Positions 4,453-63,408 of a stretch of 64,000 bases of DNA are shown one piece after another. The translations under genes and the position numbers were made by a program. Numbering within the stretch: position 1 is the stretch's first letter; the number at the start of each line of letters is the position of its first letter. Below the pieces are notes generated by a model. The model was given only the letters and a program-made list of their open reading frames with translations, ran no database searches and was not told where the DNA came from. Location: positions 18,827,101 through 18,891,100 of the forward strand of contig CM049319.1 of the NCBI GenBank assembly GCA_026874595.1, in the 5' to 3' direction. This stretch comes from Sipunculus nudus. Lineage: Eukaryota > Annelida > Sipuncula > Golfingiida > Sipunculidae.

Positions 4453-7400
4453 CGTAAGCCAGAAATCACATATTCAGAACAGGCAGGTGAATAGCTGGCT
4501 CTAAATATTATCACACTGTGACAATTAAGTTGGTAAGGGACTTTACCTAAATAAATGAGAAAATCTTGATTTGATTTATCATTAACATTACACAATCTCC
4601 GTAACAATTGGAGTATTGTGACTAAGTGAGATGTCATCTGTCAGGGACCGTCACTTCATTGTGATGGCTATATTTTTAGAACATATAAGACGCCAAACAA
4701 CCGATCGGAATTTTTTAAAATTTAGTTTTCCCTGCATGTGACCAGTTACCTGTACCATAATCAATGAGACCGAGACGTTTAAAAAGAGTTTAATTCAATA
4801 AGTAAAACTGATTTCTCCGTAATTGTTTTTTATTTATTTCAATCATAGTTTGCAAGGTCGCGTTCAAGGTGAACTCCAAGTCCTTGAAATTCGAGTTCGA
4901 GTCTACCACCTTCGAGTTCTAGTTGTTTGAAAACCGAATCCAAGACCATGTAATATTTCATCTAAAGAGTATATTTAATGTTTATAAAATCAAGGTTTCG
5001 ACATGCTTCATTCACCTTAACATTGTTAAAACGTTAAGTCTGGCTGGATAAATAAAAAATTCCTATTCCCCATTTGAGAATATTACAACTTGTCCTTATG
5101 CGATACACCACGTTTACTTTCTCAACCAAAACTATATAACTGATCTGATTTATGATTTTTTTTAAATAATAAGTAAATACACATGTTACTCTGTCAGAAA
5201 ACATTTATCCGAGTCCGTGTACCTCCGAGTCCACTTTTTTTTACCCCGAATACCTAAAGGTGGTTTTGAGACCTGATCTTAAAGTGTTATATTCCAATAT
5301 CTGACCTTTATAAACTAAAGGTAATTCCTTGGAGCTTTCATAAAAAATAGGCCAGGAAACGTGGATTTCAAGACAACCTGTCTCAGACGTCAGATTGTGC
5401 GGACGCAACGTACATATGGATTGTCTTGTACATGTGGGGACACCCCCCCCCCCCCCCTGGATTGTCTTGTACATGTGGGGACACCCCCCCCCCCCGATTT
5501 TCTTCCTCGTATTAGTTCTTAGATTTTACATTGAAGGGGAAAGAGGGTGCAATAACAGGTCTGCCAACTGATATATTAGATGTAATATGCTGAAAAGAAA
5601 ATGCAGTATAGGATGTGATAAATGTAAAATGATATACAATATATTTTACAAGCATAATACATTTATAATATTATATCCTAATATTACCATATGGCTGAAA
5701 TAATCTAATATGATAATATACATAACATGTTAGAATATAGTATAAAAATAAATAATTCTTTATCGAAATTAAAAAGTATTATAGTATTATTTGTAATACC
5801 AAATAATCTGCAAAAATGTGGGGTTTCTTTAAAAAAAAAAAGAAGTCGTCTACCATCTTTAAAATGATAGTTTTCCTTTCTATAAGAGTAATTATTTTAT
5901 TGATTTACAGGTTTAGTTTTTGATGAGTTTCTGGGCATTCCATATGCATCGCCACCTGTCGGAGACCTCCGCTGGCAGAAAACTGTGGCACCCTCTGCCT
6001 GGGAGGGCGTGAGGGAAGCGAAGACATTTTCTGCGCATTGTATCCAGTTTACTTCCGGAGATTACCCTGAAAACGATGGCGTAACGGACGAAGACAGCGA
6101 AGACTGTCTGTACCTGAACATCTGGGTTTCCGGTGGAGTTAATCCAGAAAGGTCAGGCTGGGTCATTTCTAAGTTCAAATCCAAATTAGTTTCACATTGC
6201 TGTGGGTGTTCTAGATGTATTTATCCTTGTGGACGTAGGGCCTATCACTTGAATATGAAATATAAAAATCGTTGGTATCAAACACGTAAGGCGTTAGATT
6301 ATGTAAATTTTGCAATTTTCATGGTCATAGAATAGGTGCCAACTAGATTGACTCCAAGGATAATGTCGAAAATGCATTTGACGTGAATATAGTGACATGA
6401 TGGTTTACATTCCATTCACGATAAACTAATACATCTTCGTTGCTTTTAAAATCCTGGCATCAAATATATCACGCATGTAGTATGTTAACTATATTCCCTT
6501 CATGAATGTTATTTTTCAGTAGGTTCCTTTTTTATAACGGTCCATGTTGACATTACTTTTTTCGGTTATTTATAAGTTAAAATAAAAATAAGAGGTATAG
6601 TTTCTTTGATTTACTTTCCTTTATTAAGTAGGCAGACGATGGCGCCTTAATACGCTAACCTTACTATTAACACAAGACTCCCAAGACTTCATCGCAAGGC
6701 TTATTGTCTTTTGACGGCGTAACCTCCGAGATGAGACACACCACAGGTAGAGACATTACAGCAGTTATTTAAGCCACCAATAACGTATTGAATTACCGTG
6801 AAATCCCGAAATAATAAAAAGTTAGGCAAATGGTTGACACAGTTTTAAGACCATCTGTGTTTAATCTCTATTGTTTGTAAGCAACGCCATAATCCATGCC
6901 AACTGATCAATAATGGGAACAGTTACAAAACTCCTTTCACACTTGATGGAACGGGACCGAGAACCCGAAAGCTTGTGTAATGGAGACTTTACAAGCTAGT
7001 CTTAAAGGTGTCAACCATTTACATTACTTTTTATATCACCCTATATATTTATCATATATCAGTCCAAAATGATAATAGTAATAGACAATTAACGATGGTA
7101 TATGTCACAAGAGGGATATTTTTCTTGCCTCCTGTTGCCTATGCTTACAAGGACAAAAACAGGATCATCTGTTCCTCATGTATACGTCGAACCGCATACA
7201 ATCTCATACACAATACATATCTGAGCAAGTATACCAATAAGAAAAGTATACTTACATGGAACTTTCTTGGTCTTGGTTTTGATATATGATGCACTAATGA
7301 CATCAAAGCACAAATATTTAGTAATTTCTATAGATTTGATAGCTCTATTGCTTGGTAGCTCGCTATACCAGACCACATGGTGTGAAGCACACCCGACCGA

Positions 7401-8257
7401 CCAGTTTCGATGAACAAATTTTCTCTTCCTGCGATATAGTCACAGAGCCTCTAAATAGCAGTTTTTCCATTAATCTTTATCCTAATGGAACACAATAGTT
7501 TACAATATAACAGGTTACGAAAAGGCCATTTCACAAATAAAGTTCATCTGAACTCTCGATCAGATAACCCCTAAATGGGGTTTATAGCGGACGCATTATC
7601 AGGTCGCAACAAATCACAAATGGCCATTGACCATACAGAAAACACCAGAAACACAGGAAGTTCTAAGCATATTAATTTCAGGTGTTCTACCTTAATTTAC
7701 TAGTAGTCCCATTCTTAAATGTAAATTCAACGTGGGTATCTGTGCATATTTATGCCCCCAATGAATACCACTCACTCTGATCTAGGCTAAATTAATGTGG
7801 AACAGTCTGTGCCATTCAATGCAAACTACATCTTCCAATGTTGAATGACATCATCAAAAATTTAACTCTGACAGTTTAACTGAGTTCAAACTTTATACAT
7901 TGCGCACCTGATAAAATTGTTGAACAACGCCCGAAGAATATGCGTCTAAAATAAACACCGCTTCTGTAACCGAGAGCACAAAAAAGCAGTTCAATCACTA
8001 AAATCAACAAAAACGAGATCACCATAAAAAATGCTCTTAAATATGATACCCCCTAAACATGGCAGCATACTGTGACAGTATATATGAATATACAGTCTAA
8101 CCTCGTTGTGTCGAGGTCGAAAGGACCCTCAGAAAATTTGACACATCCGAGGTTCGACACAAGCGGGTTTTATTTGGTAATAATTTAACTAGAGTTGTCC
8201 GGAATATCGAGTCTGTAACTTCGACAAATACAGGGTATTCGACTTCACTGTATACTC

Positions 8258-8319
<62 letters not shown>

Positions 8320-8364
8320 AATAAATATATATATATAAATATATGTATATATATATAAATATAA

Positions 8365-8395
<31 letters not shown>

Positions 8396-11300
8396 TAATT
8401 TGTAGTCTTTAATTTGATAATGGCTTAGAAATAAAAGTGAAATATATATTCATTTTATTGCAAATATAAATCACAAAATGTCTTTCTTCTTTTTATAAAC
8501 AGCCCAAAACGACCTGTCATGGTATTTTTCCACGGGGGAGGTTTCTTATTCGGTACCGGAGCACTTTTTCCAGGCTACGAACTGGGTCGTATTTCAGACG
8601 TCATAGTGGTCACGTTTAATTACCGACTGAGCACACTTGGTTTTCTTTCAACGATGGATTCTAACGCTCCAGGTAACTATGGATTGTGGGATGGAAAGGC
8701 CGCTTTGGAATGGGTACAGAGCAACATAGCTTTATTTGGTGGCGACCCAAGCTACGTTACCATATTTGGCCACTCAGCGGGCAGCGTTTTAGTTAGTCAT
8801 ACAGGTATGTCTCCTGCGACAAAGGGATTGTTTAATAACACGTTTTGTCTGAGTGGAGCTGCATCTGGAGCTTTTGGATACGGCATCAGACCTCGTGAGT
8901 TTTTAAGCTTATTGGCCGAGCAGTTTGATTGTCCAGTAAACGACAGTGCTGCCACCTTGGAGTGTTTACGACAGGAAGAAGCAGAAGACCTTGACCTTTG
9001 GGGTATTGTAGCACCGGTCACAGAAGGTTACATTCCATCATGGCTGCCGGTGATCGATGGAGATTTTTTAGCAAAAGAGCCTCGTCAGAGTATCATAGAT
9101 GGCGCTGCCTCTCAATATAATATGATCACAGGCCGTACTTTGCACGACGCAGCAAACTTTGTTTTCATGAACCTAAGGGGTGCCAACATGACCGGAAACG
9201 GAGCCGCAGACGACAAAGAGGAATTAGAGTTTGCAATACGCGTCATAATTAGGACCAGTACTTTTGATGAGAATGGTACCTACAACGCCCTGCTTCGTCG
9301 TTATCCAGGGGTTATGGATGATGATGCCGTTGTTCGGTCACAAGCGGTTACTCAAGCGGCCACTGATTGGCTGTTCAGCTCACCAGCACATCTGGAATCT
9401 AGTCTTTACTCACAGTGAGTGCAGTACTTATATTTTTTTAATCAATTGAAAACTAACGTCATTTTTAATGTTTATTTTTTTTTTATATTATAAGCATATT
9501 TACCTGACCACATCGTGTGTACTGAAACATTATAGACAAAAGAAATGCGAATGGGAACAACTGTCCTAACTGTCCTACTTATAAACAAGGTCACTTCAGG
9601 TTATACAATGTACATTTAAAATTTGTTTAAAGAGTCTTAAACTCCAGATAAGATTAGATGATCAGTCTGAGTACATTTGCTGTAAAATAGGGAATAATTC
9701 ATGCTAAGAATGTCATGAATATATATATATATATACACACACAGTGAAACCTCGAAATTACGACCACCAACGAGACCCTATAAAAGGGTCGCATTTCCGA
9801 GGTGGTTGTTTCAGCGAGGTCTTATGGAAAGAAGAAATAAGGATTAGGACCGTGAAAAAGTGGTCGTTATCTTGAGGTGGTCGCTAAACTGATGTGATCG
9901 TTAGGCGAGGTTTCATTGTATATATTTGTGTATATATATAAATGTAACATATAAAGAAAAAAATATATCTTTGGTTTTCAGATGTTATTTGATTAACATA
10001 TTTCTCTGCAGGGTGGGTAAAAGTTCTGCATATCTGTTCGAGTACCAACATCGACCTAATTTTGTCCTGTTTCCCTCTTGGGTTAATGGTACCCATGGCA
10101 ACGACCTGTATTCCGTCTTTGGTGACCCGTTCCGTAAGTTCTACAGAAGAAATACGTTCGAAAATGAGGGGCCGTTTAACGAAGATGACCTGCGCATGCG
10201 TGATACCTTGATGAACTATCTGCATAATTTTGCTAGGAGCGGGTATGTTAATTTTATGAAACTTGTGAAAACTTGAAAAAGTCACAGTTGCAAATTAATG
10301 AAGGATAACTTGCAAACATAGAATTTTATCGTGGTAATAGTTTGTGAACCAAAAGCCAAATGCAGGCAAGAGTTTATTCTTTAGTTATTTATTGCTATGA
10401 ATTTATAAATATCCTGTTTATAAACAAAACAAATAATTTTTGCTTGGACCTTAAAGCCTGCGCCAAATATCCAAAACGGAGCACGTCCGACTTCTCTGCG
10501 AACTGAAAAGGGAATTTTTGGCAGGAATACGGCCGGTGTTTGCTCGATCACTGCAAACTCCACCGCAATTTTTAGGGGTCGGCCGACGATCGCAGGGCAC
10601 CGAAACCTGTTCTTACATCAGCGATCAACCAATGGCGATTTTTGAGGTCGCAGAGCTCGTAAACAGGTCACCCGTAGATCGCTCGAGCAGCGGCCAACAT
10701 GTAATCGATGTTCGGGCAGCAGTCCAACGATTTTAGACGCATTTTTGCTTGAAAATTCGGACGGAGGTCGACAAAGCTGCGCGGCCTCCTCATGGGCTCC
10801 CTACGATACTCGAACGCCCCCCATTTAGCAAACCTCCAAAATTCTTCTGGCCAAGTGACATGGAGCCTCTCATGGGGTACTAGCCTCATTGTTACATATT
10901 TTTTTCAGAATATTTACGAAACTAAATCACTCTAGGCTTTTTAAAGCAGTATGTAGCCTGTGACTGTAAAATATAAACTGTTTTATCAGACATTTATTTT
11001 ATTTATTCACTTGACTTTTGTAAGATATGGTTTTGTTTCAATTTAATTGATCGGCCTATGCCTTATCATTGTTCAACCCTTCATTGGACAGATTATTGTT
11101 GTACCTGGGTTATATTTTTTACAAGGCGTTAAAACTCCAGTTTGTATCTTTATTTTTATTCAGCTCTAAACTATATACTATAGTAATAGTACCATATCAC
11201 ATAATATTCGATACCTTATTATCTCTTCTAAATAAATTATAAACCACAGAAATCCGAACCAAGGAAGACAGGTTCCGGCTTCCTGGCCAGCTTACAATGA

Positions 11301-12192
11301 TAACGACAAACAGTTTGCCCGCCTCTCCGCATTTATGACGTCATCATCAATTGAAACTGAAACACCCGATATGCTAGAGCGTTTTAAATTCTGGAATGAC
11401 GTCACAATAGGAAGGACGCCGGAAATCGAAGAGGACTTTTTGCCTTCTTCATCCAAAGAGCACGGTAAGATGGTGATAGTATCGAGGATTAGTTTTCAGA
11501 CTTTGGGTGAATTAAAATTGCATTAAACTGATGTTATTTTAATAATGATAAGTTCAAGATCCTTAAAGGTCACTCAGAAAAAGAACCAATGAATAGCATT
11601 TATTGTTCTATCCGATGACAAAGAATAAAATCCTAATCATACAGGAAAACTAAAATAAACGCTGAACTATAAATATAAAAATTATATAATACTGTAATAT
11701 AAATAATTATTGACATGCCGTTGCCAGAACCGTATGAGCATGGCTACCTTCATCTATATTCTTGTTTCAATCAGTTCGTTGAAGTAGATATAGTATACAA
11801 AATTTGAAAAATTAGGAAAATGTTTCATCGACTGATTTTTTCAAGGTAATATCATTTTAAAGTCTCTCTACTTTCAGAGTGCTTATTGCACTCTTCTTTG
11901 ATATGCCAAAAATGCTTTTAATAAGCTCTCTGATTTTGTATCTTATTCGTATATCTTAAGACAATAGTCATTTTTGGCCTCAATCTTAGGTGTTCACTAA
12001 CACCTATGCTGTTATTATGAGTTCTGATAACACCAGCACTCTGTGTCTTTAAAATGAAAAAAATTAAGAACTAGTCAGATACTGTTTTGAGTATTTTATT
12101 TATGCTGTGTGTTTAGAATTAGTTGCATTATTTCTGTTTATAATTTATATATTATTTTATGTTTTTTGTGTATAATGATAATAATAATAATA

Positions 12193-17593: not shown

Positions 17594-17841
17594 TTACTTT
17601 CCGTAGCCGCCGCCCCATCCAGATTTGTGAAGGTAGTTCCTTTTTTCTTGATTTTCAGCCGGTGATTCCGTTGCCGTTTTCAGCAGGAGTTCCAGCTTCG
17701 CTAGAGCATTATGCAGCCTGGTTTTACTCTGAACGACTTCTGACAGCAAGCCCATTATCATGGCTTCTGCTAATCTGCCTTGGGCAAGCAGCTGGCTTCC
17801 TTCTGTGTCTGTTAAATCTTTTACCTGGTCTGGTATTTTGC
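17594..17841 (-). CDS. Peptide precursor exon 2 (peptide and stop)
   Basis: The acceptor on this strand is TCTTGATTTCAG, and the exon is open for 82 codons with strongly protein-like codon choice. It contains the spacer, the Lys-Arg site, the glycine-rich NYLHKSGWGGGY and the final Gly-Lys. A possible ATTAAA polyadenylation signal lies at 17306-17301. Confidence 0.8.
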
Positions 17842-20800
17842 CTGAAATCAAGATAAAATATAATAACTGTTCAACAGAGTCTTCTGGTCTGAACTCTCCT
17901 CTGTCTTATTTTTTTCGATTGAAATCCTCAGTATATTTTATCTGTTCGTCAGTCAGAGGAAAATCTATAAATGTCAGTCAATATTAGTTTCATTGGAAAC
18001 AAGAAAACAAAAATTTACCAGTCCTTATTAAAATACTGTCATCTCGAAAATACCTGACCAAACCTGGTAAATGAAATGAATCCCTACCACGGTTTTCAAT
18101 TAACGGCTTTCCGTCCGAGCAAATTAGGACTTAACAAATATTTTAAAAATTACGTCTTCACTAATCTTGGATATAATATACTTGAGAATCCCTCTCTCAG
18201 TCGGCGAAAGACAGTCAGTGAGATTGCATTCCCATATTCTAAATCATTGGTAACACTGAATTGGCAAAAGTAATGATACAGTTATCACAAATATCAAATT
18301 TATTTTTTATAATATCCATTTATTTCAGACAAAGTTTTCAATTTCAAAGAAGGAGAGGTGCAATTACGTGGCACTTAAACGTAGATAATATATTGCTTGT
18401 TCTTTTTTATGTTATAGGTAAACTGCCGTTCAGGTATACATGACCAAAGATTGCAACTGGTGACCGGCTTCTCTTTACTTGGTGGAGCGCAGGACTCTAA
18501 AGTCAGAAGATCTTGAGTTCGAATTTCAACCGATGTGGTCTTATTTTTCACAGTCCGTTCCCACCAGCGCTCTGCAGGCTTATAATGAAGCTGTGCCCCA
18601 CGGCCGTGTTTCACTCAAAAACTAGTGTGCCTTTCTGGGGTTCCTCGGTAGCATTACCCCACAACAGGGGGAAATTACACACCCAGGGCCTGCAGGTGCA
18701 ATAGTGACCGGACCTGGATAACTCAAAAATATATAATGAGATCAAACATGTGCTACAGCCCTGTCACTTACATTCTAAAAAAGGGGTTCTTGGTCTTTAG
18801 CTCAGCTGACTGAAAGTCATCTGAGCTATAGCGATCACCCTTTGTCCGGCGTCCGTCAGGTTGTCCGGCCGTCCGTCCGTTATCAGGGCACAAATCGTAA
18901 CCGTTAAACTAAGAAACTTCTAACTGTACATCCAGGGAGGTCCTGGGCAAAGCTCCTTGGAAACCTAAAATCAGGTCATGATTACCTATATTTTGTGACC
19001 TACGGGCCGAAAACCTAATTTTGAGCACCCAGACAATCAGACGGGGAACAAATTTTATGCATTAGGCGTAGAAACATCAAAACTAACGTTTTGGTAGATC
19101 CTAGGCAAATGTCCATGGAAACCTGAAACTAGGTCACTGTGACCTATATTCTGCGACATATAGGGAATAGATGTCATATGAGCACCAAGAATGGTAGATG
19201 GGGAAAAATCGTATCTGTGAGGCCTAGAATCTTCTAACACAATTCCCTGGGAGTTTCTTGAAAAATCTCCTTGGAAACCTGAAATTAGGTCATGGTGACC
19301 TGTATTTTATGACTTTTGGATCGAAAACATAGTTATTAGCATCCAATCAGTCAGAATGTGCACAAATTGAATTGCTAAGGCCTAGAATCCTCCAACAGGA
19401 CAGTAAGAAAGGTCCTAGGCAAATCACCTTGGGAACCCGAATTAAGATCATGGAGACCTATATTTTGTGACCTACAGGCCGAATACATGATTTTGAGCAC
19501 CCTGAATGTCAGAATTTTATCTGTGAGGCCTAGAATCTTCTAACCCAATATACTTGGAGTTTCTAGGCAAATCTTCTTAGAAACCTCAAATAGGTCACTT
19601 TGACCTATATTCTGCGGCCTATAGGGAAAAGATATTTGAAAACCTTAAACGTCATATGGTGACTTTTTAGGAAAATAAAGACAGTCAGTCAGGGCACACA
19701 TTGTATCTGCTAGTCCTCAAATCTTCTAATGTAACATTCTGATGTCCTTTGCCAGTGTCCTTGGAAACTGAAATTAGGTCACCGTGACCTATAGTTTGCT
19801 ACCTATCAGAAAAGATGTCATATAAGCACCTAGACGGTCAGACAGGGCACAAATTGTATCCATTAGGCCTAGAATATTTTAACATAAAATTCAGGGAGGT
19901 CCCAGTCAAGTGTCCTTGGAAACCTGAAATTATGGTGACCTATATTGTGTGACCTATGGGCTGGAAAATGGTTTTCACACCCAGACAAACAAAGCACATT
20001 TGTATCCATTAGCCCTGTACTCTTCTAACATGATATTCAGGGAAATCCTTGGCAATTCACCATGGAAACCTGAAATTGGACCATGGTGACCTATATTCTG
20101 CTAGCTATGGACCGGAAACTTGATTTTGAGCACCCAGACAGACAAGGTACAAATTGATCCATTTTCCTTGGAACCCTCTATAGTAAACTCCAGGGGGGTC
20201 CGGGGAAAGTCTTCTATGAATCGTGAAATTTTTATTTCTGTCCATTTTTTTCAACACTGTAATTTTAGCCATACGTTATTCTCACAGACAATATATAACA
20301 TTGATAAAAAAACATGAGCACCCAGTCAAAATTAGCCTAAAAATGGCCCATAGGTCACTTGCTTAAGAACCACCTGGTTCTGGATAGAACCATGGTTCTT
20401 TCTAGAACTCTTTTCTTCGTGAAGAGGTTCGATCTGGCACTTTGAGGTTCGTGCCATGACCATAACTCATAATGAGGTTTCAGATTGAACCTGCGTTTTG
20501 ACCTGATGCACCGATGATTAGAACGCGCGTGCGCAAATAATGGAACTAATGAGATCAACTGTTCAATGGTCGATGTTTTTGTCTCTAGATATAAAAGAAG
20601 AGACCATAATATTAGGTAAGACCTTTGTTTATATATATATTCATGTGAAGAATGTCGAAGTTATCTGATTGGAGATTAACTGTCCAGCGACTTTAAGTAC
20701 CCAATTAGTCTATGTCTGCGAACAAATTTACGTTCACTTAATCTAAACGCGGATAAAGGCTAGTGATAAACATGCTATTTCTGGCATGAATTGTTTCAGT

Positions 20801-22866
20801 CATAAGTTAGAAATAGTGTAACTGAAAAAGATGAAAGGGTTTTTTTTTCATTTGGAAACAATAGAAACAATTCATTTTCTCAAGGGACTTGCGTACGTTT
20901 GAATCGCTCAATAAGGCGTATCAGATGTATTAACCATACAAATATCTTATAAGACACTTATCACCTGTTGTTTGTCGATTATATGTTGCTAAGACTTCAT
21001 ATAATTTTGTTTTGTAAAACAGACAAGTATTAATTTTATAATACAGATTTACAACATGAGACGACCTGGAATCACAAGAGATAAACATACACCTAAGAAC
21101 ACATAACCAAGAAAATATCCTTGACGAACACCAGCTATTAAACCTACAATGAACGACACACTCTTGGCATTTCTGTGTGCGGGTAAGAGAGACAGTGCAA
21201 CGTATGCAATTTCATTGTTGGTATATATATATTTAAAAAATGGAATTTTTGCAGGCATACCATAACATTTACCTGACGTATCAAAGACTCTACACTGAAC
21301 GATCACAAGAGAACTTAACAGTATTAATTTCTATTAGAAACGACTCGAAAGTGAAGAGGTGTTCACGTACTATTCCAAATGCCCAGTTTAGGTGCATATA
21401 TATATATACTAATGCTTCTTGACTGTTGCACATTTTTCACAGGTGGATCTTTAAATCTAAATAAAAATGTGTTCCCTAAACAGACCTGTTTTCATTTCAA
21501 CTATGAGGATTCGTCATATTGACATGATGCAAGTATATATATGATTTTCAGATATGATCCTTGCACTTTCTATGAGAAATGCTTTTATAATTTTCCATTT
21601 TATCTATCAAAACCTTAAACCTTAAATATGGACATATGACGTGATTAATTTATCCTCAATGTAGGATATAACATCTTAGACTGTTTCCTTAAATAAACCT
21701 GTATTGAAGGTTCTGTATAGAACCCTACACATGGGTTCCACCAAGAACCTTTCATGGGTCCCCACTCTGTCCATGACGAACCTTGGAGGTTCTCTAAAGA
21801 GGTTCTTCATGGAACCGGTAAGGTTTCATAAAAGAACCTTCAGGAGGTTAAAAACCCTCTTTTAAGGCTCCAGTTGGAGGTTCCCCACGTAGTCTACTCT
21901 AAAGATCACTTTTGTGATTTAGCTAGAACCCATTTTTCTTAGAGTGTAGTCCGAACCCGGAATGGAATTCTGCAGATATGCAGACTTATTCAAGCTAGCA
22001 TTAATATTATGGAGGCGGATAACTCCATCAAAGATGAAAGAATCAAAAACATCAAGTGGGGATATTAAGAAGAATCAGAAAACAAATAAATCAACACCTT
22101 TATATAACAATACCTATCCCACGGAAATAGGCCTTATGTATAACCTGACACTACTATCCGGTAGTCTAAAACCAAAATATAAAGCCCACTCACCAGTCCC
22201 CCCGGCTACTACGACCCCGAGTGTCGCCGGTGATCAATTATTGAACATGGTTTAGCACTAGCGAAGCTGCCAGCGCTGACAAAACAAACAATCCCGTGAG
22301 TGAAGTGACGTACCCAAGACGCAGACCGCCTAAATATTAATGCCCTTGATGATCAGCCGATGTTATTACAGTCACTATTATTTGACTGTTAATATAAAGA
22401 GCATGACCTATTCATGATTCGGGTGTCGGTCAAATGGCAAATACCAACAATTAAATATCTAGAGTTGGTAGATTCTCTTAATAAAAAAAGACGTACTGCA
22501 TTGTATTGGAACATTGGTATCAACTGTTTCAGTTTCACTTTTGTAATATCTAGTATTAATCATGTTATCGTTAATTTGGCTAACATTACAATATTCACTT
22601 AATTGAACCGATTTAACTAAAACAGCACCTAAATCAGCACAAAAATTATAAACAGAACAGTTGCAGGAATTGGATGATTTATCTTACATTACTTTTAGCA
22701 AATAGTATGATATTAAGTCTCTTTCATATAATTATAAACAGAACAACTGCAGGAATCGAATGAAGTATCTTACTTCCCGGTCTGCCAATGTTAAGATAAC
22801 TTTGGCTTTAATCTGATCAAATGCCAGTTTAAATATTACAAAAATTTAAATTTTACTTGTCTATTT

Positions 22867-22900
<34 letters not shown>

Positions 22901-25900
22901 AATATATAATATTATGCATATAACATTCGCTCAAGTGGAGAGGAAAGACTGGCCTTGTGTACTTGTCTTGTTTTATAGACTTTCACCCAATATTTTTTTT
23001 CATTTATTCAAGGGTAACCTTGATCATAATGAAATCAAATTTACAGGATAAAATCATAGTATATGAAACTAGATTTGGTCGGACAATGGTTCTCAGAGGC
23101 GCCCGCATTTCTGGTAGTGCTAGACTAGTTTACATATGGGTGAGAAGTTTAGGTTAAAGTTGAAAAATATGACAAACAGAATTAGAGTTTTATCCATATG
23201 CACTAGCTGCTCCCCTGGAAAATCCACGGCTCTATCTGATGTATATTTTTGTAATGAGCTGATAGGGAAATAAACGACGCCTATTTTAATCCTAAGGTTT
23301 TGCAGGAACTTTTGTCATGTGTTTCACCTATATGATATAAAGATTACTTCTGCTGAGTTCTCCAGTATCACGCTCCCTAAAAATATCAACATAGAAAGAA
23401 AATATATTCTATTCCAGAAATCACACAAACATTTTTTTCCCGATAAACAACATAGGTCGACAGCTTCATTGCTTGGGAAATATCATAGATATAATGATTG
23501 TATAAAGAAGCGTTCTACCGTGAAGTTAAATGAAAAATGCTTTGTATTAGTTGAAGCTCAGGCGACATCGTAAACACGATGTTTATCCAGTGTAGTCAGT
23601 TGAGGATATAGTCTAAGGCATGTTAACTGACACATGCGTTATTTGTATACACATGCATATGTCGTTGAATTCTCTTGTACGCGAAACTTATAGCTGCCAA
23701 TGTGAAAACGATAGACCCAGAAAAATATCTTCCAACAAATTTTTGGTTTAAGTACTGTAAATTGTCATTGAATAAGCAGGTCTGGTGCAAAATTGACAAC
23801 TGTCTCAGATAAAAAGAAAGCAGGTTGATATATTTTGATGAAAGCATTTGGCAAAGAAACCACTTCAGCCTAGGTTCGTTGCATTGTCTTTCAGCAAATG
23901 AACGCAAAATGTTATATACAGATTTAGCTGGAAATTTGTAGGTGGAGTAAAACTGCATCCATAATCGATAACATTTTAAGAGGTAATCAGGATCACCATA
24001 ATATATTTTTTTCTTAAGTGCCATAATCACAAATCCATAAAGGAATAACTATAAGGGGCTATTCCTTTGTCCCCAAGTAGAAGCCGCCCATTCGTATGCA
24101 GTTGTTCTGCCACTCGCCTGGTGAACCCGTGTTCCTGAACCATGACAAAGTTTATACATGAAACGTGCACATATGAACGACCGACTGATTAGTAGATTCT
24201 GGTGGGGGTTTCAAGGTCCCCTAGAGATTGAGGGCCCTCTGAAGTGTGTGTAATCCCCCCGGGCTTCCTTTTAAAAAACTTAAAAAAAACCCATAAATCG
24301 GCCGAACTACAAAAACCATGGTTATTATGGAAAATAATTCTGAATGTATTAAAATCAACAAACCTGTAACCCCTATAAAACGGTGATCGTGTAAAGGGAC
24401 TCAGCTCTTTGGGTCCTCTCAACGGAAAAGTGTTCCCTATTAAAAGATTCATGTGGACATGTTCCGCGCTTGAATTTAAAATATCTACTTATACTTTTGA
24501 CAGAGTAAAATTCCTTAACAGGCGATATAACGGAAATGGGGTTCAATGGGGATTACTGGTCGCCTCCTGAAAAAGCGTGACAGACAAAAAATGTTTTGCT
24601 GAACACATATCAATTTTGGTGAAGACATATCAATAGTCCATTTCATTTTAGGAGGTAACTAGAATCAGAACAAAATATATTTTCTAATAAAGCTTTATGA
24701 CAAAGGACCATTACTTTGTCCCCGTGTGGAAGCCACCCATTCGTACTTATTTGTCCTGTCATACGCAAGGTGAACTCGTGTTGCTGAAGCATGACAGTGT
24801 TCACACATGAAACGCATACACGCGAACACATGACTGATATTAAAGAAGAGGTCTGGTAGAGGTCTGTACGCCCTCTCTACAGATTATATTTAGTATCAAT
24901 TTAAAGATGTACTGGTGTTTTTTTCATGTTTCACCGTCCCTACAGATAACGGATCTTAAAAAAATATATATGACCCCCCCCCCACCCACCTCAAATGATA
25001 ATTAAGTTGTGGGGCTTCTTTTTGAAAAAAAAACTTCACAAAACACATGACTTGGCCTAACTTTTAAAACCATGGTTTTCATGGAAAGATATCTTTGAAT
25101 GGATAAAAATCAACATACCTGTAACCCATAAAAAAATTGTCAAACGGTGGTCACATCACTGGTCTTAGTGCCTAGTGTTGACCAAACTAAAGAGCCCTCG
25201 CATTGAAAGCGGAGTCATGTGGTCATTATATTAAAAACCTTTCCTTCCTTTTGAGAGCGAAAATTCCTTTAGAGGCGTTACAATAGATATGGGGGGTCAA
25301 TGGGGATAATGGTGGACCCGCGTGACCGCGTATTGCATGGAAATGCCTTTTGGGTAAGACATGCGCGCTGGCCACGGGCTTTAACAGGCCATTGAAAATC
25401 CCAGAGGCGCCTCCTGAAAAAGCGTCACAGTCGTGGAGGACCTTGCAGCACAAAAGAAATAGGGGCACCTAATGGGGAAATATTAAAATTATTAATTATT
25501 CAGCTTAATAGGGCATAATCCCGCAAAATAAAATAAACTTGTCCTAGAAGAGCACACCACCGATACGTCTGCCGAATTTGGAGAGCCAAATCAGAACGGA
25601 AGCTGGTAAACCGTGGTCTAGAAAAAACCCAACTCCGTATTAATTATATAGATAAGGGAAAAAACCTACTTGTTCAAATAATATTAAAAAAGATATGTCT
25701 GAAATAATGTGTGTAATATAAAATCACCGATTGTACTCTGTTGCCCAAATTTGATTTTGAGCAAGTCTTTAGTTCAGAAGGTCAGAAGGCCCCATTTGGG
25801 CACCAATGATCCCTGTAAATTTGGGAAAGCTGAAGTATGTTGTTGTTGAGTTATCGCGCGAAAAAGAAAATCAGCGATTTGGCTGTGGAAGCCATATTGG

Positions 25901-28900
25901 AATTCGGACAGGTCTGTTATTCAAAAGGTCTGAAGCCCTTGTAAGTACCAATCATCCCTGTGAATAAGGAAAAGCTGGAGTATGTTGTTGTTGAATTATC
26001 GCGCGCGAAAGAATATCAGCGATTGGGCTATGGCGGCCATATTGGAATTCGGACAGGTCTGTAATTCAATAGGTCTGGAGCTCTCTTATGTACTAATCAT
26101 CGCTATGAATTTGGGAAAGCTGAAGTACTGTATGTTGTTGTTGAGTTATCGTGCGCGAAAGAAAATCAGGGATTGGGCTGTGGTTGCCATATTGGAATTT
26201 CGGACAGGTCTGTTATTCAATAGGTCTGAAGCCCTCATATGTACTAACATCCCTGTGAATTTCGGAAAGCTGAAGTATGTTTTGTTGAGTTATCGCGCGC
26301 GAAAGAAAGTGTCACGGACGGAAGGACGGAAAGAAGGAAAGACGGACTGACACGGTGATCACTGTAGGGCACCGCTTGTCAAGCGGGGGCCCTTATAAAA
26401 GTGTAGTATTGTAAATATAGCTAATATGGAGATACCTGTGCGATATTAGATTCACCCTGTATCACATTTCCTGGCATTTAAAAGCAGCCTCATCAACACA
26501 GGATGGGTACATGTCCCATGACATACTTTCTCTTGTAAATGTAAAAAGAAGATGTTTATTTTTTAAAAATAGTTTTCAGATAAGATAATATTCAGTTTAT
26601 TTTAAATTTATTACCTGCTTCAAAAAAGAGGCGAGAAATAAAATGAACTTAAAAAATATAAAATATTAATAAATCATTTTACTATGTATTATTATTTATT
26701 ATCACTACAAACTAAAAAAGTAAAAAAAATGAAAAATGAGTTTTAACTAGATCAGTTTTTTAATCGACAATCACTTATTTAAACCGCATGTCCCACTAGT
26801 GGACAAACTATGACCTCTCTTGGTCTGCTCTTGTGTGATCGTAATCAAATATGCCCGAGATAAAAAAAACATATCTTGAATATTCTAATTATGATAAAAA
26901 AATTAAGATTTCAGTAGAAAAATATGAAAAAACTATTTCTTGACCGGATAACCCAATTATCACAAATTGCTATTTTAAAATGATCAATTGTTGGGAAAAG
27001 GGGATTGAAATACCTCACTTGTTTTATTTCCAATTAGAAATATCAAATGTACAAGATGAATAAATAAAAAATATCATATTTGCAGGATCAAACCTAATGA
27101 AATGTACAATTATCAATAAACAATACATTAATTACTGCATGTGCAATGCTTTATAGTGAAATACTAATAAGTCCAAAATCTGCAGTTACTAGTGGCAGGA
27201 ATTTCATGATTGTATTTTAAAAAAATTATTAATCATTATTAGACTGAGTGAAATTCTGGGAAGACGAGGAGACGAGTAGTATTGGATGGGGGGGGGGGGG
27301 GGTCATGGCCCCTTGCTGTCCCCTCTTGGCTAGGCCTCTGCTTCGCCCCCTAACATGAAACAAGGCTCACGGCATGAACTATTCCAAGCTTCAAACGGCA
27401 TGGGTAACCGTGGCATACACGCATTAACCTTTGTAATTAAAGGTGGAAGAAAAACAAGTAACAAGGTTTGCTTACTTGTCTTTGCAACTTGACATCTTCA
27501 GTCTAATATATAGTTTCGTCAGATTATCTTTCAAATATATATGAAACCCGTTTCCGAGGAGGTTTTGTATTGCTTGAAGAAATAAGAAACATTTTTCTGG
27601 TGTTTCTTGAATGTCATATTAATGTGATTTTTAAAAGTATTGGCCCTTGATTCCTACATCTTAGCTTTAATGTCTCGGATTAAGACATAATTATAAAAAG
27701 TACCATAGAAAAAAAATTAAAAAACTAATTTAATATTATGAAATGCAAATATCCACTGAGACCATATAGCATCGCTCAGTAAAATAAAATTCACTACCGT
27801 AATGAGCACCCCCCCCCCCGGATGTTTTAGAGATTTCTTTGAGAAAACGAAAGGGATGAGCCTATCCCACCTAACAAAAATTTGGTTGTACTTACGGTCA
27901 CCATTGTTTTTACCACCTCGCTTGATGATTTATTGGCGTCATATTATGTCAGGGTGTCCCAAGCCCATAAATATTGGCTAAGGAAGGGAAATTTTCCCTA
28001 AATAAGCGAGTAAAAGTTTTTCCATAAACCTCAGAAAGGTCACATCATCGCCAAGAACAGCATGGGGGCGCTTTTTAGGATACAAACATGATTTATAAAA
28101 TAGAGAGCGCCCGGGGCGCTTATAACGTCATTACTGTACTCGTACCCCTAAATAACTAAAATCACGATTTCTAAACTGTGAATTCATCCCAAGAGTATCT
28201 TTTCCTGTTGGGTTCGCTTAATCCAAATCTGGAAAAATACAGCTGCTAAATAATAATAGTCCAGTTGCAATAAACCTGATAAAGAGATCCAGGGACAAAT
28301 TCGGGAAGTTATTGAAAATTATTGAATGCAACAAAAATGGTACTGATAGTTTTTTTTGTTTTTTTTTTAAACATAAGCTATAAAGTTGATGAAGTGAATA
28401 CAGAGAAGTTGTGATTACAAATAATTACAATTCAACAACACATAGACCTAAATAAGAAAAGCTCTAAAAATACAGAAGTTTCATGTTAAATATACAATTA
28501 TAGCTCTAAAACAGTTTATGTTGACCATACAACGTCATTGTTTTGATTAAGGCATAATTCGAAATAAAATAAATGAACAAATGGTAAATGTTTCCATTAA
28601 AATTTTAATATTTTGTACACTTTACAGGTATTTAAGAAATTGTCGTGTATACTTAGAGCTGAACCGTACCCTCTGTGTAATTTATATAATGGCATGCCAG
28701 TTGGCAGTGGCTTGATCACCTACAACCAGTCGCTACGGAAACAAAAGTGTCACTTTGAGCAACTCAAAGCTTACAAGAACTTATTCCGATATCTGACATA
28801 TATCAACTAAAGATCATTTCTTATAAAATAGGCCAGAAAACTCCAATCCCACCGCACATAGGACGTTCGTTTAGTTTTTATCCAAGTTTATAACATCTGG

Positions 28901-30183
28901 GGGCCGCCAAAATATTCTAAACACATTCAACAAGGACATCTGGAAGCGAATCAGGCGAACCAGAGACTTTAAAAGGGAGGTTTTCAACTAGTCACCCTTA
29001 AATATCCGCATAATTGTAAAAAAAATCCCAGGTTACTTTTTTTCCTTTTGACAACATTGCAGTGTTTGTTACTACTCTGTAGATTAACAAGCTTATACAC
29101 CCGTTACAGAGGAGTTATAAGAATATCTCTTAACAGGAATTACCTGTAGGGTCCATAAATAGGTAAGCGAGAAATAACACGAATTCAATAGAAAGGTAAT
29201 GAATATCTAGCTTTAAAATATTTTGAATATAATTGAACCAAATAGGTGAACTATTAAAAAGAATCTATTTCGTGCTGTTCGAAAGCAGGATTTGGAATTA
29301 ATTCCAACAAAGGCAAGCACTGTAGTTAATGTTATTAATGCTGAAATTAAACCTGTCAGAAATGTCAATTATTGATACTCTAGTCAGCTTGAGGAATCAT
29401 AAACATTGTCCTCTAACTATCGTTTTTATTTGCCGTCATTATTTTAAATTAATTTAGTATTCTATGTATAACATCAATTGAACATAAATAATCTAAATAT
29501 AAATAGAAAGCTAAATTTGAGAGAAACCGTCTTCCTGGAACCGAGCCTGGTTTCCTGTTTCTTTAGAAGATGTTTTTCAGGAACAAATCACGCTACGGGA
29601 CATTCAGTATTTTAACCGATATCATAAAACATGAATCCTCTATAAAAAGTTGTAACACATTATCAGAGGCACAATTGTAACAAGAAAGCGATTAACTTAA
29701 ATGGTTAACAAGGAACATATAACAGCGACAAAGATAACAGAAAGTATAAAAGCATTCTTATCTTATCTTGGCCTGTATATATATATATTTTATTTTATTA
29801 AGTTTTATTTGAATAAGAAAAGACTGTCACGAGAAACTTTGTGTAACCAATATTACACAGAACAAGATACACTGGGCGCATATATTTATACTTTCTAGTT
29901 TATATCAAAATTTCTTATCATTTCTGAATGCTAAATCTTATGACTTTACGACACATTTGCCCACTTATACAAATTAGAATACTACGAACTTGGCAAATTG
30001 ATTTTTTAATTTGATATAGAGAATATCATTTATAAACAATTATTTTCATTGTATGAAAGTGAGAAATGTATTAAGAAAAATCGAATACATACCTTCAATG
30101 GGCGCTGCATGTGTTTTATGAACCACAAAGCAACCCAGGTTCGTCGCCACGATGGCTAAAGATATCAAATACCTTGCCTGCAT
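17594..30183 (-). CDS. Secreted peptide-hormone-like precursor (2 exons)
   Basis: Exon 1 (30183-30093) and exon 2 (17841-17594) join in phase 1 to give a 112-residue protein. Residues 1-26 form a signal peptide (MQARYLISLAIVATNLG start, cleavage likely near THA-APIE). Residues 31-96 are an acidic, helix-prone spacer without cysteine (AQGRLAEAMIMGLLSEV). Lys97-Arg98 is the only dibasic site. After it comes NYLHKSGWGGGY, then Gly111-Lys112 and stop. Lys-Arg is the usual prohormone-convertase site, and a terminal Gly before a basic residue is the usual amidation donor, so a 12-residue amidated peptide is predicted. I do not recognise the sequence; NY-x-H-x-S-x-GW recalls GnRH-type peptides, but the position and lack of N-terminal Gln argue against that. 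A further phase-1 exon inside the 12.3-kb intron cannot be excluded. Confidence 0.75.
18476..18710 (+). mobile_element. tRNA-derived SINE-like sequence
   Basis: ACTTGGTGGAGCGCAGGACT followed by GTCAGAAGATCTTGAGTTCGAATTTC resembles a tRNA from the A box to the B box (GTTCGAATTTC). The anticodon arm no longer pairs well, and an unrelated body follows (18610-18710), so it is a SINE rather than a working tRNA gene. Confidence 0.55.
18790..20355 (+). repeat. 155-bp tandem array, 8-9 units
   Basis: The phrase CCTTGGAAACCTGAAATTAGG recurs at about 18955, 19108, 19267, 19427, 19569, 19758, 19910 and 20058, each followed by GTGACCTATATT and GAGCACCCAGACA. The array opens with TTTAGCTCAGCTGACTG and ends GGCCCATAGGTCACTTG, which look like element ends. 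Frames are broken, so it is non-coding. Confidence 0.85.
21130..21490 (+). repeat. Dispersed repeat, paired with 51600-51965
   Basis: Shares TAAGAGAGACAGTG, CAATTTCATT, ACTCTACACTGAACGAT, GGTGTTCACG and AATAAAAATGTGTT in the same order and orientation with 51600-51965. No domain is recognised. Confidence 0.7.
22867..22908. repeat. (CA)n(TA)n microsatellite
   Basis: CA run followed by a TA run. Confidence 0.9.
23960..24600 (-). repeat. Tandemly duplicated unit, copy A
   Basis: Aligns in order with 24645-25500: ACTTTGTCCCC...GAAGCC-CCCATTCGTA, CGTGTT-CTGAA-CATGAC, AAACCATGGTT-T, ATCAACA-ACCTGTAACCC and CTCCTGAAAAAGCGT. Copy A lacks about 110 bp found in copy B between AATGGGGAT and CGCCTCCTG. 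A 135-codon - strand frame (24030-23623) overlaps it but is not recognised. Confidence 0.8.
24645..25500 (-). repeat. Tandemly duplicated unit, copy B
   Basis: Second copy of the unit at 23960-24600, about 680 bp downstream in the same orientation and diverged. It is more complete at its right end, which also matches 47105-47375 in reverse orientation. Confidence 0.8.
25770..26390 (+). repeat. 145-bp tandem array, about 4 units
   Basis: AGCTGAAGTATGTTGTTGTT recurs near 25829, 25973, 26122 and 26268, each followed by GAGTTATCGCGCG, AAAATCAGCGATT and CCATATTGGAATTCGGACAG. The last unit passes into GGACGGAAGGACGG and then GGGCACCGCTTGTCAAGCGG, which reads as the end of a mobile element. It lies in the intron of the peptide gene. 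Confidence 0.85.
26400..27796. other. AT-rich intronic DNA with a G tract
   Basis: I see no exon on either strand. A run of about 15 G lies near 27287-27301. The rest is low-complexity AT-rich intron of the peptide gene. Confidence 0.5.
27797..28136. mobile_element. Mariner-like MITE
   Basis: A 340-bp element flanked by TA. Its ends read CCGTAATGA on the left and, inward from the right, CAGTAATGA, each followed by a GCGC/CCCC-rich word. CAGT-type ends plus TA duplication fit Tc1/mariner. No transposase remains. Confidence 0.6.
28628..28810 (+). CDS. Possible terminal exon, Kazal-like fragment
   Basis: A good acceptor (TTTGTACACTTTACAG) precedes 60 codons ending in TAA at 28808-28810. Codon choice is unusually protein-like for this AT-rich DNA. 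The translation has YPLCNLYNG, then GLITYNQSLRKQKC and FEQLKAY. A PxC..-NG..TYN...C..E..KA order recalls a Kazal domain, but one expected cysteine is missing and the spacing is long. It lies on the strand opposite the peptide gene, inside its intron. I found no upstream exon with a signal peptide, so it may be an isolated or dead exon. Confidence 0.35.
   Translation, partial: VFKKLSCILRAEPYPLCNLYNGMPVGSGLITYNQSLRKQKCHFEQLKAYKNLFRYLTYIN
28880..29170 (+). repeat. Dispersed repeat, copy 2 of 3
   Basis: Same family and orientation as 4125-4400 and 31845-32170; shares TTTATAACAT, AACAAGGACATCTG, GGTTTTCAACTAGTCACC and CAGGAATTACCTG. Confidence 0.6.
30093..30183 (-). CDS. Peptide precursor exon 1 (signal peptide)
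   Basis: ATG at 30183-30181 in context AGACAATG opens 30 codons: a basic-start hydrophobic leader, LISLAIVATNLGCFVV, then HKTHAAPIE. The exon ends one base into a codon at the strong donor GTATGT, matching the phase of exon 2. Confidence 0.75.
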
Positions 30184-30456: not shown

Positions 30457-30464
30457 TTACGTCA
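30457..30464 (-). promoter_or_regulatory. CRE-like site upstream of the peptide gene
   Basis: TGACGTAA in the gene's direction, seven of eight positions of the palindromic CRE. It lies about 200 bp upstream of TATA. CREB sites are common in neuropeptide promoters, so activity-dependent control is a reasonable inference. Confidence 0.4.
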
Positions 30465-52682: not shown

Positions 52683-53153
52683 CTCTGAAGAAAACAACAC
52701 TGTTAATTCACAACAGACTGTTTCACGGGATGCGACCCGATCATCAGGTGAATGTGGTTAGAATGAAGCTAACGTCGTGGTTTGAAAAGCCGAGACTTTA
52801 CGAGATTACGAGATTATGCTTTGTGCGATTCGGGTCGGGGGGGGGGGGGGCATGTGAAAGACTGACACTGATCCTATTGTTCTCGGGTGCACAATAGGAA
52901 TGGTCGGGGTACACGTGCGATACTGGAACATAACAGGGCAGGGCAAAGAGGTTATATAATGTAGTAAATAGTAAATATAATACAAAGATATAACCAGGAT
53001 GCTCAATCAGCATATTGAAATGATTTCTAATAGGGCCTTGGAAGCAGTGAACATATCAGTAGTATACATATGATATGATAAAAATACACATATACTGTGA
53101 AAATACACAATATACAAGGCAAATATACAATATAAAAGGCAAATATACTATAC
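52683..53153 (-). repeat. Penelope pseudo-LTR arm, left
   Basis: Reverse complement of 53760-54235, differing mainly in a G tract (52839-52850) and a few bases. Read in the sense direction it begins TTTGCCTTTTATATTG and ends with the ribozyme and CTTCAGAG. Confidence 0.9.
52706..52753 (-). ncRNA. Type I hammerhead ribozyme (- strand)
   Basis: In the - direction: stem I ATTCAC, core CTGATGA, stem II CGGG-TCGCAT-CCCG, core GAA, stem III ACA-GTC-TGT, then T and the closing GTGAAT of stem I. Same sequence as the + copy at 54156-54203. Predicted cleavage is between 52712 and 52711. Confidence 0.85.
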
Positions 53154-53352: not shown

Positions 53353-53760
53353 CTAGGTTTTAAAATATTTCAGGGTGAATTTGTTTTGATGGCGGCACTT
53401 GGAGAGAATTTCAGCTCTTGAGTTCAACAATGATCCAGGGGGGGCCGTAGCTATAAGTAGCTTTTCAGACAAGCAGAGATCACACTTCCTAGTCCCACAG
53501 AAGTAAGGTGCTGCCTTGGCAGATATTTCCCAGGATAGCTTGTAATTGATATTGTTGTCTTTTAGTGACCAAATGTGTTTAGACAGTTCAGTGTTTTTAG
53601 CGTGGGATCTGTTCCGAAAGGATTGCTTGTGGTTATTATATCTTGTCTTGAAATCACCTTCAGTACACCCTATGTAGTGTTTCACGTCATTTTCTGTTCT
53701 AACTGTTGCTTTATAGACAATGCATTTCAGCTGACATTGACCATTCATAGGACATTCGTC
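53353..53760 (-). pseudogene. Penelope-like GIY-YIG endonuclease domain, 5'-truncated
   Basis: The frame is open from about 53760 to a stop at 53353. It begins CPMNGQCQLKCIVYKATV, goes on to HYIGCTEGDFKTRYNNHK and TELSKHIWSLKD, and ends near CDLCLSEKLLI and LLNSRAEILSKCRH. These are the GIY and YIG motifs, the catalytic Arg helix and the cysteine pairs typical of Penelope-type endonucleases, which nick target DNA for reverse transcription. Only this domain remains; everything upstream is replaced by the inverted arm. Confidence 0.9.
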
Positions 53761-54235
53761 TTTTGCCTTTTATATTGTATATTGTATATTTGCCTTGTAT
53801 ATTGTGTATTTTCACAGTATATGTGTATTTTTATCATATCATATGTATACTACTGATATGTTCACTGCTTCCAAGGCCCTATTAGAAATCATTTCAATAT
53901 GCTGATTGAGCATCCTGGTTATATCTTTGTATTATATTTACTATTTACTACATTATATAACCTCTTTGCCCTGCCCTGTTATGTTCCAGTATCGCACGTG
54001 TACCCCGACCATTCCTATTGTGCACCCGAGAACAATAGGATCAGTGTCAGTCTTTCACATGCCCCCCCCCCCGACCCGAATCGCACAAAGCATAATCTCG
54101 TAATCTCGTAAAGTCTCGGCTTTTCAAACCACGACGTTAGCTTCATTCTAACCACATTCACCTGATGATCGGGTCGCATCCCGTGAAACAGTCTGTTGTG
54201 AATTAACAGTGTTGTTTTTCTTCAGAGTTATACCG
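53760..54235 (+). repeat. Penelope pseudo-LTR arm, right (inverted)
   Basis: The inverted partner of 52683-53153. It abuts the truncated coding region directly, which is how a 5'-truncated copy joined to an inverted repeat should look. Confidence 0.9.
54156..54203 (+). ncRNA. Type I hammerhead ribozyme (+ strand)
   Basis: Stem I strands ATTCAC (54156-54161) and GTGAAT (54198-54203) pair perfectly. Between them lie the invariant core CTGATGA (54162-54168), stem II CGGG/CCCG (54170-54173, 54180-54183) with a U-U at its base, the core GAA (54185-54187), a 3-bp stem III ACA/TGT (54188-54190, 54194-54196) with a 3-base loop, and U at the cleavage position (54197). A short stem III and type I topology are typical of Penelope ribozymes. 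The function is probably self-cleavage of the retroelement transcript. Confidence 0.87.
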
Positions 54236-57939: not shown

Positions 57940-58210
57940 CAAAAAGACGATACACACATACATATACATACATGGCATAACAAAATAAGCGATATACATA
58001 AATTAGTACAGGTACAGACAAAAGTGCCTATTTTAGTCATTCATATTCTTCTGAATGTAATGTTTGTTAAGAATAAAGGAAAATGTTTGTTAAGAACAGT
58101 TCATCAACACCCTCCGCTTGTTCACCAATACCTTTCTAAATGACAAATAGACTACACATGAAAGTGAGCTCTTTACATGAAACATGCACTTAAAAAAAAT
58201 TAAATAAACA

Positions 58211-61979: not shown

Positions 61980-61982
61980 GAA

Positions 61983-62963: not shown

Positions 62964-63408
62964 ATTATTAATAACACATACATATTTTGTAATTTCACTG
63001 TAGACATATAGGGTTGGTGTCAAGCTTCACTCAGGCACTCAGAAAAACCCAAGAATACACAGCTATAATACACAAGATACACAGGATAGAATGAGTGCCT
63101 CTGGGGGCCCTGGTGTGCTATTACATTGAAACCATTCAGTTGTGACGGCACCCTTTCATTGTGGAATGAATAGGCCCTGTAGAACTTCAATTCTGTTGAC
63201 TTTATTCTCAATTTACAAAGTCACATTATGCCGCAATTAAACTATTTGCACATAAACTATTCAAAGTACAAATTCACTAGATAGTTCAGAATTACTGGGC
63301 AAAAATTTCTGAATAGTACTTGCCTGGAAATTTTGAAATACCCAAAGAACGTGTGAGCTCATGAAACACAGCTCCTCCCAAAACAGCACACCAGCGCCCT
63401 CCCGTCAT
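62964..63408 (-). promoter_or_regulatory. LINE 5' untranslated/promoter region
   Basis: The 445 bp between the element's 5' end and the ORF1 start. It begins ATGACGGGAGGGCGCTGGTG on the - strand. L1-type elements carry an internal promoter here; no specific site is identified. Confidence 0.5.

What the first reader, a model, noticed from the sequence alone, without database searches (positions are those of the whole stretch)
17594..30183. Unrecognised amidated-peptide precursor gene
Seen: a signal-peptide exon and a 3' exon 12 kb apart on the - strand have strong splice sites and matching phase, and join into a 112-residue protein with one Lys-Arg site, then NYLHKSGWGGGY, Gly-Lys and stop. 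Known: Lys-Arg cleavage and Gly-directed amidation define many neuropeptide precursors. Inferred: the gene makes one amidated 12-residue peptide. I cannot match it to any peptide family I know (GnRH, AKH, allatotropin, PDF, kinins, RFamides).
Basis: partly seen in the sequence, partly recalled or inferred. Interest (0 to 1): 0.85.

Follow-up and report, generated by a model that had tools for sequence, protein, structure and literature searches.

The report
Amidated neuropeptide precursor in peanut worm
A two-exon gene in the peanut worm Sipunculus nudus appears to encode a single short amidated signalling peptide that matched no family in the libraries searched, although a nereid worm has a one-peptide precursor of the same general kind that could not be compared.

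Summary
On the minus strand, exon 30183-30093 and exon 17841-17594 join in phase into a 112-residue protein: signal peptide, about 70 residues without Cys, one Lys-Arg, NYLHKSGWGGGY, Gly-Lys, stop. The window is from Sipunculus nudus: four of four comparable scaffold lengths equal the published table. Exon 2 looks coding: best codon-usage segment of the window outside the training gene; 0 of 60 simulated windows reached its score; of 20,000 dinucleotide shuffles 317 stayed open and none scored as high. It is the only one of 2,139 frames of 20 residues or more with the [KR]R...Gly-Lys-stop ending. Gene and motif are found once in 1.43 Gb. No significant Pfam, NCBIfam or PDB relative. It is not GnRH: an ordinary GnRH gene lies elsewhere. 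The closest described kind is Platynereis 'GYa', with one short amidated peptide and no ortholog known in 2013. Its sequence was out of reach, so orthology is untested, as are expression, processing, activity, and presence in the published gene set. Verdict: very likely a real neuropeptide-type precursor; moderately interesting.

The parts
30093..30183 (-). Exon 1 (coding part): ATG, signal peptide and first residues of the propeptide (MQARYLISLAIVATNLGCFVVHKTHAAPIE and the first base of Gly31)
   Evidence: donor AAG|GTATGT
30106..30183 (-). Predicted signal peptide, residues 1-26, cleavage expected after THA (recalled -3/-1 rule; SignalP not available)
   Evidence: hydrophobic core, maximum 12-residue mean 2.1
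17842..30092 (-). Intron, 12,251 bases, GT-AG, phase 1; contains diverged tandem repeats with units near 145-158 bases
17594..17841 (-). Exon 2 coding part: spacer, cleavage site, peptide, amidation signal, stop
17639..17644 (-). Lys-Arg (residues 97-98), the only dibasic pair in the protein
17603..17638 (-). Predicted mature peptide NYLHKSGWGGGY-amide (residues 99-110)
17594..17602 (-). Gly111 (amide donor), Lys112, stop TAA
30252..30257 (-). TATA-like TATAAG 74 bases upstream of the ATG (read by eye, not tested against chance)
   Evidence: inference
30457..30464 (-). CRE-like TGACGTAA upstream of the TATA-like site (read by eye; may be chance)
   Evidence: inference

Best explanation
This is a neuropeptide (regulatory peptide) precursor gene of Sipunculus nudus with two coding exons. 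Shown from sequence: a two-exon reading frame with coding statistics, a hydrophobic start, one Lys-Arg, and a Gly-Lys-stop tail. Inferred: the signal peptide sends the protein into the secretory pathway, a prohormone convertase cuts after Lys-Arg, a carboxypeptidase removes the last Lys, and the amidating enzyme (PHM/PAL) turns Gly111 into a C-terminal amide. That yields NYLHKSGWGGGY-NH2 (calculated mass 1336.631), released from neurons or endocrine cells and most likely read by a G-protein-coupled receptor. By described layout it is closest to the Platynereis GYa precursor.
For: Exact frame and sites. Coding signal confined to the predicted exon, best segment 17600-17833. Simulation, shuffle and flank controls. 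Wrong frames score -20.9 and -9.5 against 18.4 in frame. The only such processing ending among 2,139 frames of 20 residues or more. The only suitable phase-1 signal-peptide exon upstream in the window. Exon 2 DNA, the protein and the motif GWGGGYGK each find only this gene in the genome, with pattern control 0. Genes of the copper type II monooxygenase family, to which the amidating enzyme belongs (recalled), are present (PF01082).
Against: No transcript, no mass spectrum, and no homolog in any collection searched; apart from this genome these are not collections of annelid genomes. The splice sites are good but not unique. The codon model rests on 527 codons of one gene, scores some real exons near zero when left out, and gives exon 2 antisense 9.5 to 10.5 bits. 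The 12-kb intron could hide a small exon.
Confidence: 0.85

Rival explanations
1. On identity: the gene is the sipunculan ortholog of the Platynereis dumerilii GYa precursor, so it belongs to a family already named, and that family is annelid-wide rather than Platynereis-specific.
For: [quoted passage not shown] it is listed as amidated, with mass-spectrometry evidence, in the paragraph on precursors without orthologs outside Platynereis. This gene has one short peptide ending in Gly-Tyr-amide, in another annelid. That GYa ends in Gly-Tyr-amide is taken from its name.
Against: The GYa sequence is in a supplementary file that could not be read, so no alignment was possible. A GY ending is only two residues.
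Confidence: 0.4
2. The gene is real but makes a secreted peptide of another kind, such as an antimicrobial or epithelial glycine-rich peptide, rather than a neural messenger.
For: Many secreted defence peptides also have a signal peptide, a spacer and a Lys-Arg cut before a C-terminal product (recalled). The product is glycine-rich.
Against: Only 12 residues, no Cys, little charge, and an amidation signal. The BRICHOS-type precursors of annelid antimicrobial peptides (recalled) would be expected to give a Pfam match and none appeared.
Confidence: 0.1
3. Exon 2 is real, but exon 1 is not its true partner, or a further exon lies in the 12-kb intron or upstream, so the N-terminal part of the protein differs.
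For: The intron is long, and the acceptor ranks only 18th of 730.
Against: The one suitable phase-1 signal-peptide exon upstream in the window is exon 1. The four best internal exon candidates are 31-45 bases long with coding scores of -5.2 to 4.6. Among minus-strand segments listed between the exons the best is 10.9 bits, below the simulated median maximum of 13.5.
Confidence: 0.08
4. The peptide is a derived GnRH or adipokinetic-type hormone: NY.H.SGW recalls the molluscan GnRH start (recalled).
For: A loose match that needs gaps.
Against: No Gln at the start, the peptide does not follow the signal peptide, and there is no Pro-Gly-amide. The genome has an ordinary GnRH gene, QAYHFSKGWMPG-KR directly after a signal-peptide-like stretch, on C2.
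Confidence: 0.02
5. Chance: an open frame and two splice-like sites in non-coding sequence.
For: No transcript or homolog is in hand. At least one of six frames stays open in 14.6% of shuffles of this exon.
Against: Codon statistics: 0 of 20,000 shuffles and 0 of 60 simulated windows reach the score. Segment borders match the exon. The processing ending is in 1 of 2,139 frames.
Confidence: 0.03

Closest known systems
Platynereis dumerilii GYa precursor (PMC3890597; passages and parts 2 and 3 of 7 of the main section seen)
   Same: Annelid; one short amidated peptide per precursor; Gly-Tyr-amide end (the latter taken from the name)
   Different: Sequence not available here; orthology untested
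Wx3Yamide family of bivalves (PMC5996578 and PMC4200219, passages seen)
   Same: C-terminal W-x3-Y-amide (WGGGY-amide here)
   Different: The scallop precursor is listed with three peptides ending in W-[S/N/H]-I-A-Y-amide; here a single peptide, Gly at all three x positions, and no homology shown
GNamide of oyster and scallop (PMC8398477, section 2.7 read)
   Same: Shared GWGG core (pQTFGWGGAGN-amide); precursor with one short amidated peptide and one longer peptide
   Different: Pyroglutamate start and Gly-Asn-amide end; the paper says it may be bivalve-specific
Orcokinin of ants (NFDEIDRAGWGGFV, passage in PMC10194420)
   Same: N-aromatic start, basic residue then S/A-GWGG
   Different: Acidic middle, gaps needed to align; not amidated and multi-copy (recalled)
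GnRH of Sipunculus nudus (C2:8933793-8933827)
   Same: Secreted precursor with Lys-Arg and amidation Gly
   Different: Peptide at the N-terminus with Gln start and Pro-Gly-amide; a separate gene

Membership tests
Amidated neuropeptide precursor | N-terminal signal peptide | tested here: met
   Hydrophobic core and small residues before the expected cut; heuristic only, no SignalP. 43 of 662 ATG frames of 25 residues or more are at least as hydrophobic
Amidated neuropeptide precursor | Dibasic convertase site before the peptide | tested here: met
   Single Lys-Arg at residues 97-98
Amidated neuropeptide precursor | Gly followed by basic residue or residues at the C-terminus | tested here: met
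   Gly-Lys-stop
Amidated neuropeptide precursor | Expression in neurons or endocrine cells, peptide detected, receptor activated | not testable with these tools
   No transcript, mass-spectrometry or receptor data available
Annelid GYa (Platynereis) | One short amidated peptide per precursor, Gly-Tyr-amide end (end taken from the family name) | tested here: met
   against the description in PMC3890597
Annelid GYa (Platynereis) | Sequence similarity to the Platynereis precursor | not testable with these tools
Wx3Yamide | C-terminal W-x3-Y-amide | tested here: met
   WGGGY-amide; family
Wx3Yamide | Several related peptides with an I-A-Y-amide end | tested here: not met
   One peptide only, GGGY against three scallop peptides
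GNamide | Gln/pyroglutamate start and Gly-Asn-amide end | tested here: not met
   Asn start, Gly-Tyr-amide end
GnRH/AKH superfamily | pGlu peptide directly after the signal peptide, with GW-x-P-G-amide end in GnRH (recalled) | tested here: not met
   Peptide is C-terminal with Asn start; the genome's GnRH is another gene
Pedal peptide/orcokinin | Repeated, mostly non-amidated peptides (recalled) | tested here: not met
   One peptide with amidation signal

The most novel reading that the evidence does not exclude
NYLHKSGWGGGY-amide founds a peptide family of its own, restricted to sipunculans or annelids, with its own receptor. Or, if it is the GYa ortholog, it shows that a peptide thought private to Platynereis goes back to a deep split within annelids.
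Probability: 0.5. Interest if true: 0.5.

Novelty: new member of a known kind. Interest (0 to 1): 0.42.

Why it matters
I saw no sipunculan neuropeptide in print: none of the six papers listed combined Sipunculus with neuropeptide (that one search, open-licence library only). A defined single peptide with an exact mass is directly testable by mass spectrometry and receptor screening. If it aligns with Platynereis GYa, it would turn a precursor found only in Platynereis into an annelid family, and suggest that short one-copy peptide genes are missed because little more than the peptide is likely to be conserved.

Tried and rejected
Pfam gave one weak match, COG6_C at E 0.18, below its cut-off; NCBIfam one meaningless match at E 0.23; PDB sequences none at E up to 10. 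Viral contigs: 10 stretches matched a pattern, none confirmed. Prokaryote genome contigs: 136 stretches, none confirmed. Rfam and ARAGORN found nothing in the window. Literature strings SGWGGGY, GWGGGYG, GWGGGYamide, KSGWGGG, WGGGYGK, SGWGGGYa: 0 papers. GGGYamide and similar strings: 47 papers, 40 listed; by title and start of abstract I saw none on an invertebrate peptide precursor, and none was opened. GWGG with neuropeptide: 7 papers, of which PMC10194420 (passage) and PMC8398477 (passages and section 2.7) were opened and 5 were not. GGGY with neuropeptide and 'amidat': 3 papers, seen in the listing only; one of them is about nematode neuropeptides and was not opened. Four snail papers hold no GGY, GWG, GYamide, GYa or GYG in the main text. 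A nemertean/brachiopod/phoronid survey holds no GGY, SGW, GWG, GYamide or WGG, a mollusc survey no GGY, GYamide or WGG, and a Platynereis connectome paper no GYa, GYamide, GGGY or GWG; their supplements were not open. Haliotid growth-associated peptide dropped: described as a double-chain peptide. Cuttlefish orcokinin B dropped on its described peptides. Internal exons: none convincing.

Not obtained: a structure prediction, and genome scans for GNamide-like and Wx3Y-like motifs.

Full report
What was checked. The minus-strand sequence was read around both exons and joined.

Which organism. The genome search places the window at C14:18827101-18891100 of an unnamed 1,426,538,692-base assembly in 153 contigs. 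I looked at the lengths of 8 of the first 17 contigs (C1, C2, C10, C13-C17): 110.9 Mb down to 61.1 Mb; C18 has 52,500 bases. The published Sipunculus nudus assembly (PMC10212961, part 1 of 4 of the text read) has 1,427 Mb in 17 chromosomes. Its table gives the scaffolds of rank 2, 10, 14 and 16 as 98,497,835, 79,641,139, 68,268,086 and 63,522,239 bases. The held contigs C2, C10, C14 and C16 have exactly these lengths: 4 of 4 ranks that could be compared. The published total, 1,426,776,655, is 238 kb larger than the held one. The host is therefore the peanut worm, in class Sipuncula of phylum Annelida.

Is it coding. A codon model was trained on 527 codons of the carboxylesterase gene in the window (three of its four pieces match Pfam COesterase; the fourth was placed by eye). 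Of 212 frames of 60 codons or more, exon 2 ranks third, after two training exons, and its best segment, 17600-17833, coincides with the predicted exon. In 60 windows simulated from the mostly non-coding part of the window, the highest segment was 18.1 bits against 22.0. In four real flanks of 10 kb each, one segment passes 22 bits, at 24.4, and it is an exon of an amiloride-sensitive sodium channel gene (PF00858, E 1.1e-11); exons of a lectin and of a DUF1647 gene there score lower, so the model is specific but not sensitive. After dinucleotide shuffling of the exon itself, 317 of 20,000 stayed open in frame and none reached the real score of 18.4. In frame it scores 18.4 and in the wrong frames -20.9 and -9.5; antisense frames score 9.5 to 10.5, and with one exon left out the training exons score from -0.2 to 22.5 bits.

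Is exon 1 its partner. The donor ranks 4th of 747 and the acceptor 18th of 730 in the region with a recalled consensus matrix, and no internal exon candidate combines sites and coding signal. Of 2,569 ATG codons in the window, 662 open frames of 25 residues or more, 43 of them at least as hydrophobic as exon 1. Two with a comparable start also have a strong phase-1 donor: exon 1, and one at 8025, downstream of exon 2. A TATA-like site lies 74 bases upstream of the ATG and a CRE-like site further up (by eye). Candidate polyadenylation signals begin 287 bases after the stop (ATTAAA, window 17306). The partnership is likely but not proven.

Processing. The protein has one dibasic pair, Lys-Arg at 97-98. 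A scan of the stop-to-stop frames of the window for [KR]R, 4 to 40 residues, then Gly and basic residues before the stop found this frame alone among 2,139 of 20 residues or more; one 19-residue frame among all 7,606 also fits, and allowing any dibasic pair gives 2 of 2,139. The spacer windows examined show modest amphipathicity and no strongly hydrophobic stretch. The genome carries copper type II monooxygenase genes, the family that holds the amidating enzyme (recalled): 53 matching pieces, the best at E 7.6e-39. Which of them is the amidating enzyme was not examined.

Relatives. In its own genome the gene was found once: DNA of exon 2 finds only itself, the protein finds only its two exons at E up to 10, and the degenerate motif GWGGGYGK finds only this place with a control count of 0. 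Pfam, NCBIfam, PDB sequences, viral contigs and prokaryote genomes give no significant match. These are not collections of annelid genomes, so absence of homologs is not evidence of novelty.

What is known. The others were not tested one by one. In the papers opened, four resemblances were found. Platynereis GYa (PMC3890597; [quoted passage not shown] Bivalve Wx3Yamide peptides share W-x3-Y-amide. Oyster GNamide, pQTFGWGGAGN-amide, shares GWGG. An ant orcokinin shares a GWGG core. Only GYa agrees in phylum, single-peptide layout and, by its name, C-terminus. Searches for the peptide's own strings found no paper; wider string searches were followed up only in part, as told under Tried and rejected.

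Verdict. A neuropeptide-type precursor gene is the best reading, at 0.85. Shown: sequence, phase, coding statistics and sites. Inferred: splicing, secretion, cleavage, amidation and signalling. It is a new member of a known kind of gene; whether it founds a family or belongs to GYa is undecided.

Noticed in passing
window 5904-11526, + strand: Carboxylesterase/cholinesterase-type gene in several exons (PF00135, E down to 3.4e-70); used as the codon training set.
   Followed up: partly
window about 58200-63030, - strand: LINE-type retrotransposon pieces in several frames: reverse transcriptase (PF00078, E 1.5e-8) and a sub-threshold endonuclease match.
   Followed up: no
window 52798-53055 (-) and 53857-54111 (+), with 53353-53769 (-) between: Two nearly identical 84-85 residue frames in opposite orientation flank a frame that recalls the GIY-YIG part of a Penelope-like element (recalled; no Pfam match at 0.01). 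Suggests an inverted repeat.
   Followed up: no
window 18886-20145 and 25802-26308: Diverged tandem arrays with units of about 145-158 bases inside the intron; similar-looking frames also occur in flank L004.
   Followed up: no
L003 and L002 (C14:18807101-18827100) and L004 4632-5153: Neighbouring genes: amiloride-sensitive sodium channel exons (PF00858, three pieces), a C-type lectin exon (PF00059) and, on the other side, a DUF1647 exon (PF07801).
   Followed up: partly
contigs C60, C61, C62, C66, C72, C74, C75, C89, C123 and C5 of the assembly: COX1-family matches: 9 places with 577-578-residue frames and one on C123 that looks cbb3-like, on unplaced contigs, which suggests bacterial contigs in the assembly (origin not tested); one short piece with a stop on C5; no clear mitochondrial gene among the 11 listed.
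   Followed up: partly
C2:8933793-8933827, - strand (L030): GnRH-type precursor of S. nudus: signal-peptide-like stretch then QAYHFSKGWMPG-KR.
   Followed up: partly
genome-wide, clusters on C5, C10, C1 and C3: 53 matching pieces of copper type II monooxygenase (PF01082), with clusters that suggest a family expansion.
   Followed up: no
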